DNA of 64,000 nucleotides from Anaerobacillus sp. CMMVII (GTDB lineage Bacteria; Bacillota; Bacilli; Bacillales; Anaerobacillaceae): NCBI RefSeq assembly GCF_025377685.1, contig NZ_JACEHK010000001.1, positions 426,885-490,884 on the forward strand, in the 5' to 3' direction. Positions 405 to 24,196 of the stretch are shown piece by piece. Every line of letters begins with the position of its first letter. The stretch's first letter is position 1. The notes beneath the pieces are model-generated. The model ran no database searches and was not told where the DNA came from. It saw nothing but the letters and a program-made list of their open reading frames with translations. The translations under genes were made by a program, and so were the position numbers.

Positions 405-412
405 CTTTCAGT

Positions 413-463
413 GGGGTCTGACCCCCAGCACGGTAAAGCTTTACTGCGCTGGGGGTCAGACCC
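413..463. repeat. REP-1 palindrome copy 1
   Basis: An imperfect palindrome with GGGGTCTGACCCC at one end, GGGGGTCAGACCC at the other and a TAAAGCTTTA core. It is one of five copies in the window and lies just after the dgkB stop, where it could fold as an RNA hairpin. Confidence 0.9.
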
Positions 464-632
464 TCTTTAATACTCTTTAATATTTGAGACCCTTTAACAA
501 TACATCCAATTGCAATTACGCTATAATTACAAATGGTAGTTGTGATACGTAGCGAAGTTGCGTCAAAACTCATATTTTCTAAATTGATAGAAGAAGTAGA
601 GAGAATAAAAACCAATAAAGGAGTTTGATTTT

Positions 633-15645: not shown

Positions 15646-16113
15646 ATGTTTGAAACAAATGTAAAATATGCACTGAATGTAGCACCTAGCATTATTGAAG
15701 AGGGGTTAACTCGTAAGGAAAGTGAATGGCTCTTAGATGGCCATTTTCTCTTTGAGGACCAAGAGGGAAATGACTTGTTTGTCGTCGTCAAAGAAAACGT
15801 CGACCATCGTGATGTTGGTGAACTATTTCGATATGAAGCACTATCAAATAATCCGAAAACAAGATATATGCTAATAGGCAAAACAATCTCAGACCTAATA
15901 AAAGAAGGATTAATCAAATGGGATTTTGAGTACAGAGAATTAGCAAGTTCAAAAACTAAAGTAATGCTGCAGCTATTGGTTTCAGAAATGATCGAAGAGG
16001 TTGTGCAATTGCAGAACTTTCAATATCAAATGGAGCAGTGCATCGACTTACTTACGATCGAATTAGATATGCTGCATTGTAGGGGTCTGACCCCCGCCGC
16101 GTTAAAGCTTTAA
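15646..16113 (+). CDS. Hypothetical protein with REP-derived C-terminus
   Basis: A 155-residue soluble protein; the ATG at 15646 follows GGAAGGGGAAACGTT. The body has alpha/beta character (RYEALSNNPKTRYMLIG, WDFEYRELASSKTKVMLQLLVSE) with no confident family. The last ten residues, RGLTPAALKL, are encoded by a REP-1 palindrome, which also provides the stop. The original C-terminus has therefore been replaced or truncated by the repeat. Confidence 0.65.
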   Translation: MFETNVKYALNVAPSIIEEGLTRKESEWLLDGHFLFEDQEGNDLFVVVKENVDHRDVGELFRYEALSNNPKTRYMLIGKTISDLIKEGLIKWDFEYRELASSKTKVMLQLLVSEMIEEVVQLQNFQYQMEQCIDLLTIELDMLHCRGLTPAALKL

Positions 16114-16133
16114 CGCAGTGGGGGTCAGACCCC
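16082..16133. repeat. REP-1 palindrome copy 3 (inside a gene end)
   Basis: 52-nt palindrome with GGGGTCTGACCCC ends; its TAAAGCTTTAA core supplies the stop codon of the upstream gene. It is followed by TTTTTT and may act as the terminator. Confidence 0.9.
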
Positions 16134-16240
16134 ATTTTTTCCTTTTTATTAGTACTATTTTCTATATTGTCGAATTTTTACCTACTTAATTGGGATACTA
16201 ACTTCTAAATCATCTAAATGTTAGAAAGGGTAGGGGCATC

Positions 16241-17341
16241 ATGAATTTTAAACCATATGAAGACGATTCTTTGTTGTTTTCAAAGAAGTCTGCTCGCAAT
16301 GTGTTTATTGTGTTAGTGTTGGTCTTTTTTTCTATCTATATTGGGTCTGAGCAGCTCGGGTATGTAGATATGGCGCTTTATGGCTATTTATGGGCGACAA
16401 TCGTTTGCTTTGTTTTGTTGACGATTAGAATTACGTCTTGGACGCTTCGTCCTCCAACGAGAAGGTTATGGAAACAAGGAATAAAAATGATGGCGAGTCC
16501 TAAAGGACTGAAGTTTGCTTTTAAAACCTTATACTCCAATTTTGGAGAACAGAAGTTTATTAGAAACCGTTCGTTTTTTCGTTGGGTTCAGCATATGTTC
16601 ATTTCTTGGGGAGTTTTAATTTCTTTTGCTATTACATTCGCGCTTGTATTGAATTGGATGCATTTTGAGTTAATTGAACCAAAAACATATGTCGTGGTCT
16701 TTTTCGGTCTACCGATGTTTCAGATGGAGGCTGATTCATTTTTGGCTTTCATGCTTTATCATGGCTTAAATTGGACCGGCATTGCGGTCATTATTGGATG
16801 TGGCATGGCCTTATACAGAAGGGTAACGGATCAAAAGAAGATTGTTGAGCAATCGAAGGAGTATGACTTTTTTCCACTCGTTCTTTTAATAGCTATCTCA
16901 ATCACTGGTTCTCTTTTAACTGTCTCTGCAATTTGGATGGAGGGCTTCTCGTATTTAGGAATTGCTTTAGCTCATCAAGTTACAGTTATTGTTTTTCTAC
17001 TGTATTTTCCATTTAGTAAGTTTTGGCATTTACCACTTCGTTTTTTGGCAATTGTAGTTCCTATGTATCATGCGATGGCAGAACAAAAGCCGTGTGCGAA
17101 ATGTGGACGAGAGTATGCAACTGCTACTCAAATTAAAGATGTTCAGATTGGGTTAGAAAAAAGGCAGTTGTCTGTTCCGATAGACAAAACGTCTCTTCAT
17201 TTTTCGGATCTGTGTTCAGAGTGCCGAAGAGTAAGCCATCGCTTGGGTGGATATGGTGCGAAAGTCCACTTAGGGCAGGCAAATATAGTACTAGAAAGTA
17301 ATGGCCGAAACGGTCTTCAAGCAGCGAAAGGAGAGGAATGA
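16241..17341 (+). CDS. NarI/DsrM-like membrane cytochrome b subunit with CXXC tail
   Basis: A 366-residue integral membrane protein, first gene of a six-gene redox operon. About seven hydrophobic segments; candidate haem-ligand histidines lie in WVQHMF, MLYHGLN, ALAHQV and KFWHLPLR, and the FSKFWH motif recalls the NarI/DsrM/HmeC family that oxidises menaquinol. After the last helix, a cytoplasmic tail carries two Cys pairs (CAKC and CSEC), likely a zinc or iron-sulfur knuckle. Inferred role: electron transfer between the quinone pool and the molybdoenzyme encoded 3 nt downstream. GAAAGGGTAGGGG precedes the ATG. Confidence 0.7.
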   Translation: MNFKPYEDDSLLFSKKSARNVFIVLVLVFFSIYIGSEQLGYVDMALYGYLWATIVCFVLLTIRITSWTLRPPTRRLWKQGIKMMASPKGLKFAFKTLYSNFGEQKFIRNRSFFRWVQHMFISWGVLISFAITFALVLNWMHFELIEPKTYVVVFFGLPMFQMEADSFLAFMLYHGLNWTGIAVIIGCGMALYRRVTDQKKIVEQSKEYDFFPLVLLIAISITGSLLTVSAIWMEGFSYLGIALAHQVTVIVFLLYFPFSKFWHLPLRFLAIVVPMYHAMAEQKPCAKCGREYATATQIKDVQIGLEKRQLSVPIDKTSLHFSDLCSECRRVSHRLGGYGAKVHLGQANIVLESNGRNGLQAAKGEE

Positions 17342-17344
17342 TAC

Positions 17345-19504
17345 ATGGGTCATTCTCAAAATAGGGAATATGTCCAACGTGAATATGATGCGATCGAAAG
17401 AGATGGGGAGGAATTAATCTCAACTCATTGCTGCTTTTGCGGTATGCAGTGTGGAATGAACATCCGTGTGAAAACGGACTCAAAGGAAGTTCTCGGAGTT
17501 GAACCTCGCTATGATTTTCCAATGAATGGTGGAAGACTTTGTCCAAAAGGTGTTGCGGCTTACCGACAGGCAGAGCATGGTGAAAGACTTCTACATCCAC
17601 TGATCCGGAAAAATGGGAAGTTAGTGGAGTCTACTTGGGACGAAGCGATGGAGCTTATCGTTTCAAAGATTAAGGGAATCCAAGCGGAGTACGGTAAGGA
17701 CGCGATTGGGATCTATAGTGGTTCATCGATGACAAATGAAAAATGTTATCTAATGGGCAAATTTGCACGGATTGGCCTTGGTACAAAAAATATCGATTAC
17801 AACGGAAGATATTGTATGTCCTCTGCTTCATTTGGGTTTAATCAAAGTGTCGGAATAGATCGCGGTTCAACCAATCCGTGGTCTGACATTAAATCTGCAG
17901 ATGTATTGCTATTAGCGGGTTCAAACACTGCTGAGTGTCATCCGTTATCAATGCCGTATATATGGGGAGCGCGAGATAATGGCGCCAAAATCATTGTTGT
18001 TGATCCAAGGCAAACGAAGACAGCGTTAGTTGCGGATATTCATTTGGATATTCGTCCAGGAACTGATGTGGCGTTAGCGAATGGACTACTACATGTCATG
18101 ATAGAAGATGATTTAGTAGACCATGACTTTATTGAAAATCATACAACAGGCTTTGAAAAATTGAAGGAATTGGTGAAAAAATATACACCAGCGCATGTGT
18201 CAGAGATTACAGGTGTTGCACCAGAAAAAATTGTGAGCGCAGGAAGAATGTTCGGACAAGCAAAGAATGGCATGGCGATGTTTGCTCGTGGTGTTGAACA
18301 GCATGCTACTGGAACAGATGCAGTTTCAACTTATGTAAATCTTTGCTTAGTCACTGGGAAAATTGGTCGAAAAGGATCAGGATTCGCTACCTTTACTGGA
18401 CAAGGAAATGGACAAGGTGGGAGGGAACATGGTCAAAAAACAGATCAATTACCAGGGTTTCGAAAGATCACCGATCCTAAAGCGCGTGAGTATATTGCCA
18501 GCGTTTGGGGTGTAGATGAATCCGAAATCCCAGGGCCTGGTTTATCAGCTTATGAATTACTACAAGCGTTAGGGAAAGAGATTAAGTGTTTAATCTTGGC
18601 CTGCAGTAATCCAATCGTCTCTTCTCCATCCATTGCTCATGTTGGTGAATATCTTAAAAGCTTAGACTTCTTTGTGGCAATCGATATGTTTTTATCAGAA
18701 TCTGCAGAGTTAGCTGATGTTGTTTTACCGTCAACCGTTTGGGTGGAGGATGATGGAACAACGACGAATGTCGAAGGTCGTGTTCTTAGACTCAAAGGGA
18801 TTGATCGAACTCCTGGGGAGTCAAGACGTGATTGGGAGATAATTTGTGACTTAGCAGAGCGCCTAGGTAGAGGAAAGTATTTTAAGTACGATAGTCCGGA
18901 AGAGATTTTTAACGAGCTTCGAGTAGCGAGTAAAGGTGGCATCGCTGACTACTACGGAATTACTTATGAAAAGCTAGATAAGATGCAAGGGGTATTTTGG
19001 CCTTGCCCGACAGAAGAGTCGGAGGGCATGCCGAGGCTATTTGAGGATCTGAAATTTAATTTTCCAGATGGAAAAGCAAGGATATTAGCGTTTGAACATA
19101 AAGGGCCAAATGAAAATATTAGTAAAGAGTACCCAATTATCCTATCAACTGGTCGTGTCGTCTATCACTATTTAAGTGGCAATCAAACACGACGAATTGA
19201 ATCACTGCTAAATTTTTGTCCGGATCCCTACGTCGAAATTCACCCGAAATTAGCAGTAAAGCATAACATCGGGGATGGAGAATTGGTTAAAATTTCGAGC
19301 GCAAGAGGTAGCATGGAGGTTGTCGCAAAGATTACCAAGATTATCAGGGAAGACATGGTATTTGTACCGTATCATTGGGGGAAATCGTTAGCAATTAACA
19401 ATTTAACGAACCCAGCCTTAGATCCCAACTCGAAAATTCCTGAGTTTAAGGTTTGTGCGGTAAAGATTGAAAAAGCCGAGAGTATGGGGGTAAAACATGG
19501 GTAA
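17345..19504 (+). CDS. Molybdopterin oxidoreductase, Nas/Nap-like nitrate reductase type
   Basis: A 719-residue bis-MGD enzyme. The N-terminal [4Fe-4S] motif is CCFCGMQCGMN...GGRLCPKG; the molybdenum ligand region NGRYCMSSASFGF has a cysteine, as in NasA/NapA; TGQGNGQGGREHGQKTDQLPG is strongly reminiscent of assimilatory nitrate reductases; the C-terminal MGD-binding domain includes LSTGRVVYHYLSGNQTRR. No Tat signal is present, so it is cytoplasmic. It overlaps the iron-sulfur gene by 8 nt. Nitrate is the likeliest substrate, but formate or another oxyanion cannot be excluded. Confidence 0.85.
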   Translation: MGHSQNREYVQREYDAIERDGEELISTHCCFCGMQCGMNIRVKTDSKEVLGVEPRYDFPMNGGRLCPKGVAAYRQAEHGERLLHPLIRKNGKLVESTWDEAMELIVSKIKGIQAEYGKDAIGIYSGSSMTNEKCYLMGKFARIGLGTKNIDYNGRYCMSSASFGFNQSVGIDRGSTNPWSDIKSADVLLLAGSNTAECHPLSMPYIWGARDNGAKIIVVDPRQTKTALVADIHLDIRPGTDVALANGLLHVMIEDDLVDHDFIENHTTGFEKLKELVKKYTPAHVSEITGVAPEKIVSAGRMFGQAKNGMAMFARGVEQHATGTDAVSTYVNLCLVTGKIGRKGSGFATFTGQGNGQGGREHGQKTDQLPGFRKITDPKAREYIASVWGVDESEIPGPGLSAYELLQALGKEIKCLILACSNPIVSSPSIAHVGEYLKSLDFFVAIDMFLSESAELADVVLPSTVWVEDDGTTTNVEGRVLRLKGIDRTPGESRRDWEIICDLAERLGRGKYFKYDSPEEIFNELRVASKGGIADYYGITYEKLDKMQGVFWPCPTEESEGMPRLFEDLKFNFPDGKARILAFEHKGPNENISKEYPIILSTGRVVYHYLSGNQTRRIESLLNFCPDPYVEIHPKLAVKHNIGDGELVKISSARGSMEVVAKITKIIREDMVFVPYHWGKSLAINNLTNPALDPNSKIPEFKVCAVKIEKAESMGVKHG

Positions 19505-20066
19505 AGTCTTATATATCGATTACGAACGATGTATAGGGTGTAGGGCATGTATCGTTGGGTGCGAAGAATGTAGTGGACATGATCACATGTCAAGGATGTT
19601 TGTCGACGAGTTAAATCCCGGGGAAACAGTTGCGACTTCACCTACACCATGTATGCACTGTGTGACACCAGCATGTGCGGAAAGCTGTCCAGTACAAGCG
19701 ATTTCTATTACAGCTGATGGGTTTGTCCTCTCAGCTTCAATGGAGAAGTGCATTGGTTGTAAAAACTGTACCTATGCGTGTCCGTTCGGAATCCCTAGAG
19801 TAGATGACGTCAAAAAAATGATGTACAAATGTGATATGTGTTATGACCGTACATCCAAAGGTACACCGCCAATGTGTGCGAGTGTTTGTCCGACGGATAC
19901 AATTCAATTCCTTGATGAGCAGGAGTTGAAAAATCATTCACCAAAAGAAGTTCAATACCAGTGGGACTTTGGTGGTACAACCATTGAGACAAAAACCGTA
20001 ATTGGTTTACCAGATACGAGAAGCAATAACTTTGGTTATTATGATGGTGAAGGGGTGCAATCATGA
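19497..20066 (+). CDS. Four-cluster [4Fe-4S] electron transfer subunit
   Basis: A 189-residue ferredoxin-type protein of the NrfC/HycB/DmsB group. Sixteen cysteines lie in four sets: CIGCRACIVGCE, CMHCVTPACAESCP, CIGCKNCTYACP and CDMCYDR...CASVCP. It overlaps the molybdoenzyme gene by 8 nt and the Rieske gene by 4 nt, so translation is probably coupled. No signal peptide, so it likely carries electrons to the molybdoenzyme on the cytoplasmic side. Confidence 0.88.
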   Translation: MGKVLYIDYERCIGCRACIVGCEECSGHDHMSRMFVDELNPGETVATSPTPCMHCVTPACAESCPVQAISITADGFVLSASMEKCIGCKNCTYACPFGIPRVDDVKKMMYKCDMCYDRTSKGTPPMCASVCPTDTIQFLDEQELKNHSPKEVQYQWDFGGTTIETKTVIGLPDTRSNNFGYYDGEGVQS

Positions 20067-20560
20067 AGAAAATTGAAGAATTTCTTCGTTCACTTACTTT
20101 TAACGTTAGAAGAGACCGAGAACTAGATTTAAACAGAAGAGGCTTCGTTGCCTCAACTCTAGCACTAATGGGTGTCATGTTTCTAAGCTCGACTCCCTTA
20201 GTGGTTTTATCAAAAAGGAAAGAAGCCACTGATTTAGAAATGTTTATTGCCAATCAAGGCGATTTAGAGGTTGGTGATAGTGTCACCTTTGGATATCCCA
20301 AAGAAAGTGACCCAGCTTTACTAATCCGCATTTCTGAAGAGGAGTACCGTGCCTATCACATTAAGTGCACTCATTTAATGTGTCCTGTCTACTGGGATAA
20401 AGATGATGGGAGACTGATTTGCCCTTGTCATCATGGCTTCTTCAATGTTGAGGACGGGTCAGTTATTGCTGGGCCTCCACCACGTGGTCTACCTTCAATT
20501 ACCTTGTCATTTAAAAACAACGGCATATATGCAGTTGGGGTTACCCAAGCACAACACTAG
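20063..20560 (+). CDS. Tat-dependent Rieske [2Fe-2S] protein
   Basis: A 165-residue protein. The N-terminus has a twin-arginine motif (NRRGFVAS) followed by a hydrophobic helix, as in QcrA-type Rieske proteins that stay membrane-anchored with the domain outside. Cluster motifs are CTHLMC and CPCHHG (C-x-H...C-x2-H) followed by GPPPRGLPSI. Finding it next to a cytoplasmic Nas-type enzyme and a NarI-like subunit, rather than in a bc complex, is unusual and suggests quinol oxidation on the outer side of the membrane. Confidence 0.85.
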   Translation: MKKIEEFLRSLTFNVRRDRELDLNRRGFVASTLALMGVMFLSSTPLVVLSKRKEATDLEMFIANQGDLEVGDSVTFGYPKESDPALLIRISEEEYRAYHIKCTHLMCPVYWDKDDGRLICPCHHGFFNVEDGSVIAGPPPRGLPSITLSFKNNGIYAVGVTQAQH

Positions 20561-20572
20561 GAGGTGTATCAA

Positions 20573-20767
20573 ATGAGAATGGCGTGGTGGATATTTATTA
20601 GTTTAATCACGATACAGATCATTTTAGTTCAATATATGGTTGAAGAATACTTAGCAGGGCACTATGATACACTATTTTACTATTTTCTTGCACTAGGATT
20701 TATGTTTGTATTCACGATCATTACGTACATTTTCTTTAGAAAAGTAGACCGAGTAATGGATCAATAA
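20573..20767 (+). CDS. Small two-helix membrane protein of redox operon
   Basis: A 64-residue protein; the ATG at 20573 follows GGAGGTG. Two hydrophobic segments (AWWIFISLITIQIILVQYM and a YFLALGFMFVFTIITYIFF-like second helix) are separated by an acidic loop. Position between the Rieske and globin genes suggests an accessory membrane subunit. No family recognised. Confidence 0.65.
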   Translation: MRMAWWIFISLITIQIILVQYMVEEYLAGHYDTLFYYFLALGFMFVFTIITYIFFRKVDRVMDQ

Positions 20768-20784
20768 CTAAGGGGTGGAATACT

Positions 20785-21123
20785 TTGGGAAAAAATAACG
20801 ATTATCAGGCTTTATCCAAAGAGTTTTTTAGTAAAGTTCAAGGAGATCCAAAATTACAGGAGCTGCTTCAGAACTACGCACAAGAACGAATCCAGCACCA
20901 TCCAGAAACTTTTCATTCTCATGCATTCGGTGAAGGGAATTATTCAAGTGAACAAATTAAGGAAGCGCACAAAAATGTCACAATAGATGACCACCATTTT
21001 GAATCAATGGTTGATCATTTCGTACAAGCACTAAATGTTCATGGATATAGTGATGAGGACAAGAAGAAAGCACTGGAAATGTTAAAAGGGTATAAGGATA
21101 TGGTGTTAAGCGAGCAACTGTAA
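20785..21123 (+). CDS. Truncated haemoglobin (group I-like)
   Basis: A 112-residue protein from TTG with AAGGGGTGG upstream. It aligns by eye with the 2-on-2 globin core: SKEFFSKVQGDPKL (B/C-helix area), FHSHAFGEGNYSS (E-F region) and EAHKNVTIDDHHFESMVDHFVQAL, in which the His of EAHKN is the expected proximal haem ligand. It lacks part of helix A. Truncated globins bind O2 and NO; last in a nitrate-reductase-like operon, it may detoxify NO or deliver O2. Family call made from motifs only. Confidence 0.65.
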   Translation: MGKNNDYQALSKEFFSKVQGDPKLQELLQNYAQERIQHHPETFHSHAFGEGNYSSEQIKEAHKNVTIDDHHFESMVDHFVQALNVHGYSDEDKKKALEMLKGYKDMVLSEQL

Positions 21124-21209: not shown

Positions 21210-21243
21210 AAAAGAGGTTGGAAATCGGTCCAACCTCTTTTCG
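21210..21243. terminator. Bidirectional terminator
   Basis: aaaagaggttgga/tccaacctctttt perfect stem between the plus-strand redox operon and the minus-strand Mrp gene; A and T runs on both sides allow use in both directions. Confidence 0.85.
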
Positions 21244-21255
21244 TTGCCTATAAAA

Positions 21256-22005
21256 TTATTCCTTCTCTGGGCTACTCGTTAATTTTACAACCTTCTGCGC
21301 AAGCTCCATATACATATCAAATAGAATTCCTTCACGGTAAATAGATGGTTCAAAATCGCCTTCCTTAGGTGCTATGATTGGTAATTTCGCGAGCACCTCT
21401 GTACCTAAAGAAGAAGCAAGTTGTTCGGATCCACCTTTGCCAAAAATATAGTATTTTTCCTCGGAATCTGGTGGCTGAAAAAATGACATATTCTCAACGA
21501 TCCCAATGAGTTCATGATTGTTGTTAGCTGCCATTTTACCAGCTCTTTCTGCAACATGAGAAGCAGTTGGGTGAGGGGTTGTCACTAGGATTTGGTGTGA
21601 AGAAGGGATCAGTCGATTGACATCCAAAGCAACATCTCCAGTCCCAGGAGGCATGTCAATGACGACATAATCTAACTTGCCCCAAAGAACATCATTAATA
21701 AACTGTTCGATCACTTTGCCTAGCATTGGTCCGCGCCAAACAACGGGGTCATTGTTTTTGACGATAAATCCCATCGACATGATGGACACCCCATGTGACT
21801 CGACGGGAACAATTTTATTATTCATTGATTTAGGTCCAAAGCCTATATTCATCATTTTTGGAATGCTACTACCATAAATATCAAAATCGATTAGCGCTAC
21901 AGCTTTTCCTTGCTTTGCTAATGACACGGCAAGATTGGCAGAGACAGTAGACTTTCCAACTCCACCCTTACCAGAAATAACAGAAATAATTTCACCAGAT
22001 AACAT
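21256..22005 (-). CDS. Mrp/SalA-like P-loop ATPase without DUF59 domain
   Basis: A 249-residue protein of the Mrp/NBP35 family. The deviant Walker [10 protein letters not shown], the [11 protein letters not shown] segment and [12 protein letters not shown] are all present. The usual N-terminal DUF59 (MIP18) domain is absent, and the CPxC iron-sulfur motif expected after GIVENMSFF is replaced by [10 protein letters not shown], as in B. subtilis SalA. A cluster-carrier role is therefore doubtful; a regulatory or other ATPase role is possible. It is 33 nt downstream of a hypothetical gene on the same strand. Confidence 0.85.
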
Positions 22006-22038: not shown

Positions 22039-22362
22039 TTAAAAGTATGAAGCATTATCTTTACAATTTTTCATAGAACTATAGATATAACTAACCCACT
22101 TATCCCAATTCTTTGTAATATAAACAGATTCTCCGTCTGGCAAATAGCCTAAAAAACTATTTGAATCGTCGACTTTCCCATTCAATGAATGTTGAAGCTC
22201 TACAATGATATCATGAATGAGTAGATATTCAGGTAGCGTTAATTCTCCAGAATACTGAAGATTAATTTGACCTTCAGAAATAAACAAATCCCCAAGCGCT
22301 TTATTAACTGTCGATGGATGAATTTGATAGTGAGTAGTACTAATTCTATTTATGTTGTTCAT
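22039..22362 (-). CDS. Hypothetical protein, possible CTG start upstream
   Basis: A 107-residue soluble protein from the ATG at 22362; no ribosome site precedes that codon. The frame is open further to a CTG at 22416, eight bases after GGGAGG, which would add 18 residues (LLSTTITFQGDLDETILH). No domain recognised. It is upstream of and probably co-transcribed with the Mrp-like ATPase. Confidence 0.6.
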   Translation of the reverse strand: MNNINRISTTHYQIHPSTVNKALGDLFISEGQINLQYSGELTLPEYLLIHDIIVELQHSLNGKVDDSNSFLGYLPDGESVYITKNWDKWVSYIYSSMKNCKDNASYF

Positions 22363-22523
22363 GTGAAGAATTGTTTCATCTAGATCACCTTGAAATGTAA
22401 TAGTTGTCGATAACAGTGTGCAAACCTCCCTACATCTTTACATTAAGTATGGACAACAGCTACCATATAATAAACGTCTATTAATTTATTTGAATTATAT
22501 TAATTATTGGGGGTCAATTATTG

Positions 22524-22575
22524 GGGGTCTGACCCCCGGTGCTTTAAAGCTTTACAGTGGTGGGGGTCAGACCCC
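22524..22575. repeat. REP-1 palindrome copy 4
   Basis: 52-nt palindrome with a GCTTTAAAGC core, ending 18 nt before the DUF123 gene start. A partial ggggtcaattattgg duplication precedes it. Confidence 0.9.
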
Positions 22576-22593
22576 AGATGCACAGAAAGGATA

Positions 22594-23917: not shown

Positions 23918-24024
23918 AAATCCTCCTAATATACCATAAAGAATAACTTCTTTACTTCCAGCATACTTAATAATATTCTTTAGCCGAAGTTCACATTCCT
24001 TTTATTAATACTAAAGGTCTTTTT

Positions 24025-24076
24025 GGGGTCTGACCCCCGGCGCTTTAAAGCTGTACAGCGCCGGGGGTCAGACCCC
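24025..24076. repeat. REP-1 palindrome copy 5
   Basis: 52-nt palindrome with GGGGTCTGACCCC ends and a GGCGC...GCGCC inner stem. The interval 23918-24196 holds nothing else recognisable. Confidence 0.9.
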
Positions 24077-24196
24077 AAAAAGGAAACGAACTAATTCTTT
24101 AGTCAAAGTGTTAGATGAATAATTGCTGTTCTAACCTTAACTTATAACATTCTCTAGTCGGGACACCCTAAGATAAAACGATTGGAGGCTATGAAA

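What the first reader, a model, noticed from the sequence alone, without database searches (positions are those of the whole stretch)
16241..21123. Six-gene operon: NarI-like cytochrome b, Nas-type Mo enzyme, 4x[4Fe-4S], Tat Rieske, small membrane protein, truncated globin
The genes are tightly packed with 4-8 nt overlaps in the middle. The Mo enzyme has Nas/Nap-type motifs and no export signal, yet it is paired with a quinol-type membrane subunit carrying a CXXC/CXXC tail and a Rieske protein with a Tat motif. That implies a route from an external Rieske centre and quinone to a cytoplasmic nitrate-like reductase. This differs from NarGHI, NapABCD and ferredoxin-dependent Nas systems as I know them. 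The terminal globin suggests NO or O2 handling. It is the best candidate here for a poorly described respiratory or assimilatory complex.
Basis: partly seen in the sequence, partly recalled or inferred. Interest (0 to 1): 0.85.

Follow-up and report, generated by a model that had tools for sequence, protein, structure and literature searches.

The report
Unrecognised quinol-linked nitrate reductase in bacilli
This gene cluster most likely builds a membrane-bound enzyme that lets many soil and alkaline-lake bacilli use nitrate in place of oxygen, made from a different set of parts than the two textbook nitrate-respiration enzymes, so standard gene searches miss it.

Summary
Window 16241-21123 has six packed genes: NarI-like cytochrome b (A), Nas-type Mo enzyme (B), four-cluster Fe-S protein (C), Tat-Rieske (D), 64-aa two-helix protein (E), truncated globin (F).

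A-B-C-D occur in this order in 80 of 82 Bacillales loci (window included); E follows in 78. Four Deinococcus plasmids carry the NarI-like gene; in the one read, the whole set. The globin marks the window's subclade. Subunit distances co-vary (r 0.92-0.95).

B is distinct from canonical assimilatory NasC; none of 28 NasC loci has A, C, D or E nearby. Its active site is Cys-Met (nitrate-reductase type). NarK transporters, Crp/Fnr, Moco genes and, in one clade, an NreA-like nitrate sensor lie alongside. 40 of 49 named genomes lack both NarG and NapA. Bacillus sp. DNRA2 lacks NarG, NapA and canonical NasC, has three copies, and reduces nitrate to nitrite (PMC10653820).

Best reading: a menaquinol:nitrate oxidoreductase with a cytoplasmic active site. 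A keeps NarI's proximal heme ligands but lacks one distal ligand in all 33 sequences tested, suggesting the outside Rieske centre joins in quinol oxidation; that step is inference. No description was found in the papers searched.

The parts
16241..17341 (+). Gene A: NarI-family cytochrome b, 6 TM, N-in/C-in, with cytoplasmic CxxC-x36-CxxC tail
   Evidence: Fold match EtfD Z 11.8, NarI Z ~10; profile match to NarI prob 94.9, E 5e-8; invariant H118, H245, H263, C285, C288, C325, C328 in 33/33; loop charges
17345..19504 (+). Gene B: Nas-type Mo-bisMGD catalytic subunit, no export signal, Cys-Met active site
   Evidence: trees
19497..20066 (+). Gene C: ferredoxin-like subunit with four [4Fe-4S] motifs (DmsB/FdhB-like)
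   Evidence: 17 Cys conserved at 99-100%
20063..20560 (+). Gene D: Tat-dependent, membrane-anchored Rieske protein with bc-type disulphide cysteines
   Evidence: Pfam Rieske; NRRxF motif and CTHLxCP...CPCHxG across the family; single N-terminal TM
20573..20767 (+). Gene E: 64-aa two-helix membrane protein; the same slot holds DUF6755 in Deinococcus
   Evidence: present in 78/82 loci; counterpart DUF6755 PF20540; clade III counterpart
20785..21123 (+). Gene F: truncated globin, accessory of the window's subclade (clade I)
   Evidence: Pfam PF01152; follows E in 13 of 14 clade I loci; proximal His conserved
21210..21241 (.). Inverted repeat AAAAGAGGTTGG-8-CCAACCTCTTTT between the convergent operons, probable two-way terminator
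   Evidence: read directly from the sequence
21256..22005 (-). ApbC/Mrp (NUBPL-type) Fe-S carrier ATPase, probable assembly helper; lies inside the operon between C and D in Mesobacillus
   Evidence: Pfam PF10609 272 bits; near the complex in 52/82 loci
22039..22362 (-). Uncharacterised helper family; full-length members fold as a ferredoxin-like domain plus Sm-like barrel, the window copy has the first domain only
   Evidence: 34 of 35 genomes with the family also carry the complex, Fisher p 3e-27; model pLDDT 95, fold look

Best explanation
The operon encodes a membrane-bound menaquinol:nitrate oxidoreductase with a cytoplasmic active site, used mainly for anaerobic (dissimilatory) nitrate reduction. 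Proposed electron route: menaquinol is oxidised at the outer face of the A/D module; electrons pass through the heme b of A to the four [4Fe-4S] clusters of C, then to the [4Fe-4S] cluster and Mo-bisMGD of B, where nitrate is reduced to nitrite; NarK exchanges nitrate and nitrite. The Rieske protein D, exported by Tat and anchored outside, probably takes the place of the missing distal heme of NarI or takes one electron per quinol. The globin in the window's subclade probably removes NO formed from nitrite. Shown here by computation: one conserved unit, NarI family, nitrate-type active site, Tat-Rieske, inside-facing tail of A, link to nitrate genes, and presence in nitrate reducers that lack NarG and NapA. 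Inferred: substrate, direction, quinol site, the Rieske step, the globin's role.
For: Conserved unit: A, B, C and D together in 81 of 82 Bacillales loci, E in 78; the whole set on a Deinococcus plasmid and its A gene on three more; distances of A, B, C, D co-vary with Mantel r 0.92-0.95 against a shuffled maximum of 0.29. Substrate: Cys-Met at the Mo site as in NasC/NasA/NapA, not Cys/Sec-His as in FDH; NarK-family transporter in 33/82 loci and directly after the complex in Deinococcus; clade III sits beside an NreA-like nitrate sensor, HisKA_3 kinase and LuxR-type regulator; Crp/Fnr in 39 and Moco genes in 11-13 loci. Cytoplasmic side: B has no signal; A is N-in/C-in by loop charge; NarK implies nitrate entry. 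Quinol link: A is NarI family. Physiology: 28 of 39 complex-bearing relatives and 40 of 49 named genomes lack both NarG and NapA; Bacillus sp. DNRA2 lacks NarG, NapA and canonical NasC, carries three complexes, its other Mo enzymes look DMSO-reductase- or FDH-like or of another family, and it reduces nitrate to nitrite when anoxic (PMC10653820).
Against: No biochemical or genetic evidence. B passes the cut-off of the formate dehydrogenase alpha model TIGR01591 (672 against 666 bits). Presence of the complex is not anticorrelated with NarG (odds ratio 0.94, p 1). In Anaerobacillus itself NapA is also present, and reported nitrate use varies by species: A. alkalilacustris is listed as nitrate-negative (PMC11944866) although its genome has a clade II complex. 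The window copy has no NarK beside it. No FNR-type sites above chance in the window. The mapping of H118 to NarI H56 rests on spacing and fold, since the local profile alignment covers only residues 178-270.
Confidence: 0.75

Rival explanations
1. Outward-facing complex: the Tat signal on the Rieske protein D carries B and C across the membrane as hitchhikers, as AioB does for AioA, so nitrate is reduced outside.
For: D's best NCBIfam relative is the arsenite oxidase Rieske subunit AioB (TIGR02694, 55 bits); B has no signal of its own; the twin-arginine motif is near-invariant.
Against: NarK-type transporters accompany the complex, which an outside enzyme would not need; the conserved Cys tail of A, the likely dock for C-B, faces inside.
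Confidence: 0.12
2. Quinol-fed assimilatory nitrate reductase: the same chemistry, but serving nitrogen supply rather than respiration.
For: B's nearest relatives are assimilatory NasC.
Against: Complex-bearing genomes also carry canonical NasC more often than others do (16 of 39, p 2e-4), so the assimilatory job is often already filled; NreA-like, Crp/Fnr and NarK neighbours; DNRA2 reduces nitrate dissimilatorily without other known nitrate reductases; the window genome has three NrfA-type nitrite reductases.
Confidence: 0.08
3. Different substrate: the enzyme reduces another oxyanion (selenate, chlorate) or oxidises formate.
For: B narrowly passes the Fdh-alpha cut-off; selenate and arsenate respirers carry the complex (Mesobacillus selenatarsenatis, Anaerobacillus arseniciselenatis).
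Against: Cys-Met active site; nitrate transporter and nitrate-sensor neighbours; a distribution far wider than selenate respirers.
Confidence: 0.05

Closest known systems
NarGHI respiratory nitrate reductase
   Same: NarI-family cytochrome b, four-cluster Fe-S subunit, cytoplasmic Mo subunit, NarK and Fnr/NreA-type neighbours
   Different: Catalytic subunit is Nas-type (719 aa), not NarG; no NarJ-type chaperone found in the operon; adds a Tat-Rieske and a two-helix protein; A lacks the distal heme's TM3 histidine and has a CxxC/CxxC tail
Firmicutes assimilatory nitrate reductase NasC
   Same: Closest catalytic relative, about 45-50% identity, same active-site motif
   Different: Separate clade; 28 NasC loci show none of A, C, D, E within about 1.5 kb
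Periplasmic nitrate reductase Nap (NapA with NapB/C/GH)
   Same: Cys-Met Mo site, quinol-linked role
   Different: NapA carries its own Tat signal and sits outside; B scores 300 against a cut-off of 931 bits and has no signal
Haloarchaeal pNar (NarGH with Rieske NarB and cytochrome b NarC)
   Same: From general knowledge: a Rieske and a cytochrome b feeding a nitrate reductase
   Different: NarG-type catalytic subunit, outward-facing, bc1-type cytochrome b (general knowledge, not tested here)
Arsenite oxidase AioAB
   Same: Rieske protein with Tat signal next to a Mo subunit that lacks a signal
   Different: No NarI-like or four-cluster subunit; AioA scores far lower than NasC against B (165 against 935 bits)

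Membership tests
NarGHI | NarG catalytic subunit (TIGR01580) | tested here: not met
   B scores 68.8 bits against a cut-off of 1084
NarGHI | NarI-family membrane subunit | tested here: met
   hhalign prob 94.9, E 5e-8; NarI and EtfD are the top fold hits, Z 10-12, above unrelated rows at 7.5; Pfam Nitrate_red_gam is matched just under its gathering score in clade III and Deinococcus
NarGHI | Four heme-ligand histidines of NarI | tested here: not met
   Three invariant His (118, 245, 263); the residue at the H66 spacing is Ser/Ala in 33/33
NapA systems | NapA family with Tat-exported catalytic subunit | tested here: not met
   300 bits against a cut-off of 931; no signal in B
Assimilatory NasC | NF047855 equivalog score | tested here: not met
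   935 against a cut-off of 1100 bits; the intact family members listed score 864-946
Assimilatory NasC | Falls inside the NasC clade | tested here: not met
   Canonical NasC is a clade at 100% without the complex; whether the complex is one sister clade is open (95, 58)
Formate dehydrogenase alpha | Cys/Sec followed by His at the Mo site | tested here: not met
   Cys-Met in all members displayed, although the TIGR01591 cut-off is narrowly passed
AioB / bc-type Rieske proteins | Tat motif and Rieske box with disulphide cysteines | tested here: met
   the AioB equivalog cut-off itself is not reached (55 against 96 bits)
Quinol:nitrate oxidoreductase (by activity) | Menaquinol-dependent nitrate reduction | not testable with these tools
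   needs purified enzyme or mutants

The most novel reading that the evidence does not exclude
A third architecture of dissimilatory nitrate reductase in which an outside Rieske [2Fe-2S] centre replaces the distal heme of a NarI-type cytochrome b, so that quinol oxidation is Rieske-gated (possibly bifurcated) while nitrate is reduced inside by a Nas-type enzyme; assimilatory NasC and this respiratory complex would be two uses of one catalytic lineage.
Probability: 0.4. Interest if true: 0.88.

Novelty: new variant of a known kind. Interest (0 to 1): 0.78.

Why it matters
Surveys of nitrate respiration count narG and napA. If this reading is right, tens of bacillus genera (and some Deinococcus) scored as unable to reduce nitrate, or as partial denitrifiers or ammonifiers, carry the missing first step, which changes predictions of nitrate loss and ammonium retention in soils and alkaline waters. 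It would also be a new pairing of a NarI-type cytochrome b with a Rieske protein, which bears on how quinol oxidation is coupled to proton release.

Tried and rejected
Rejected: NarGHI, NapA, FDH and canonical NasC membership (see Membership tests). Rejected: Rieske and NarI genes belonging to another complex (co-variation; order). Tried: mutual exclusion with NarG as evidence for replacement; there is none (odds ratio 0.94), so only the many genomes lacking both NarG and NapA are used. Tried: FNR-type sites, 26 matches in the window against 31 expected; promoter scan not above chance. Tried: phylum-wide search for A in 398 Bacillota, which found only Bacillales plus weak fragments; a search around Deinococcus was not possible. 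Literature searches found no description of this complex; the nearest are Heylen and Keltjens 2012 (NasC with HCP and a Rieske in B. bataviensis, PMC3475470) and papers on Nap in Anaerobacillus (PMC11944866, PMC10373932). The library lacks most subscription journals, so a published description cannot be excluded. Fold search of the helper family gave only common domain arrangements.
Full report
Check of the observation. All six genes are under strong purifying selection against a congener, dN/dS 0.024-0.077.

It is a conserved unit. A homologues occur in 39 of 150 relatives. Counting the window, two further loci of its genus and 79 loci from named genomes, A, B, C and D are together in 81 of 82 and E in 78; the one without is cut by a contig end, and one other has a changed order. 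Four Deinococcus plasmids carry A; the one read carries A-B-C-D plus a two-helix protein (DUF6755) and a NarK, with A annotated as an MFS transporter. Pairwise distances of the four subunits co-vary at r 0.92-0.95. Three Bacillales clades can be told apart: I (window; globin in 13 of 14 loci), II (widespread, no globin in the operon) and III.

What the parts are. A: AlphaFold gives six helices and a small outside beta sheet; the best solved relatives are EtfD and NarI, standing above unrelated rows, and a profile comparison with NarI gives probability 94.9 and E 5e-8, aligning H245 and H263 with NarI H187 and H205. H118 fits the place of H56, but the residue ten further on, H66 in NarI, is Ser or Ala in all 33 sequences. 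So the proximal heme pair is kept and a distal ligand is lost. Loop charges put both ends of A, and so its CxxC/CxxC tail, inside. D: a twin-arginine motif is found in 80 of 81 and the bc-type Rieske box with both disulphide cysteines in 81 of 81, so it should sit outside, as QcrA does in bacilli (general knowledge). B: no signal; active site Cys-Met as in Nas and Nap, not Cys/Sec-His as in formate dehydrogenase.

Place in the family tree. Canonical NasC from relatives forms its own clade at 100% (28 rows; 14 rows); the complex's B is outside it, as are NapA and proteobacterial Nas. Whether all complex B's form one clade is supported in one tree (95) and open in another with more members (58). 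None of the 28 canonical NasC loci has A, C, D or E within about 1.5 kb.

Why nitrate, and why respiration. NarK-family transporters lie by the complex in 33 of 82 loci. Crp/Fnr regulators, Moco genes, YwiC and a heme-synthesis-like radical SAM protein (TIGR04053) are frequent neighbours. Clade III has an NreA-like nitrate sensor (100 bits, below the equivalog cut-off of 175) with a kinase and response regulator. Of 39 complex-bearing relatives, 28 lack NarG and NapA, and 16 also lack canonical NasC; of 49 named genomes, 40 lack NarG and NapA. Presence is not anticorrelated with NarG, so this is not exclusion. Bacillus sp. DNRA2 lacks all three known enzymes, has three complexes, its remaining Mo enzymes being DMSO-reductase-like, FDH-like or of another family, and reduces nitrate to nitrite in anoxic culture (PMC10653820). 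This is the strongest link to a phenotype. Draft genomes may miss genes, so absence counts carry that caveat.

Helpers. An ApbC/Mrp Fe-S carrier is near the complex in 52 of 82 loci, inside the operon in Mesobacillus. An unnamed family (window 22039-22362) is found in 35 relatives, 34 of which carry the complex; its full-length form folds with high confidence as a ferredoxin-like domain and an Sm-like barrel. I take both as assembly factors; that is inference.

Mechanism and limits. The route menaquinol to A to C to B to nitrate follows from the families involved. The Rieske step is the open question: loss of the distal heme ligand together with an obligatory outside Rieske suggests that the Rieske centre takes part in quinol oxidation, but nothing here shows where it docks, and the distance to the proximal heme may be too long without another centre. 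In the window's own genome a second, clade II copy is frameshifted in B, NapA is present, NarG is absent and three NrfA-type nitrite reductases are present. Phenotypes in the genus are mixed (PMC11944866), which counts against a simple presence-equals-phenotype rule.

Noticed in passing
window 410-465, 1733-1788, 16079-16134, 22521-22576, 24022-24077: Five copies of a 56-nt element built from GGGGTCTGACCCC and GGGGTCAGACCCC 26 nt apart; none expected by chance. One copy lies directly upstream of gene A and another inside the start of a DUF123 ORF.
   Followed up: partly
L039:6838-8960 (window genome, contig C18): The clade II copy of the Mo gene in the window's genome is split by a frameshift, while relatives carry intact copies; a pseudogene or an assembly error.
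   Followed up: partly
window 22039-22362; L097:18217-18759: Protein family without Pfam or NCBIfam name that tracks the complex almost perfectly; predicted ferredoxin-like plus Sm-like fold; the window copy lacks the second domain.
   Followed up: yes
L164:6681-7793 and three other Deinococcus plasmids: The NarI-like subunit of the Deinococcus complex is annotated as an MFS transporter in public records.
   Followed up: yes
L220:8500-8844, L224:9571-9891: Clade III clusters carry two further small conserved proteins of unknown family between E and NarK.
   Followed up: no
G000 contigs C1, C2, C10: Several Mo-enzyme genes of the window's genome, formate dehydrogenase-like by score and length, have one in-frame TGA, as expected for selenocysteine.
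   Followed up: no
L042:10644-12152 and L044:1604-3139: NarK-family transporter with a C-terminal PAS-type sensory domain next to the complex.
   Followed up: no
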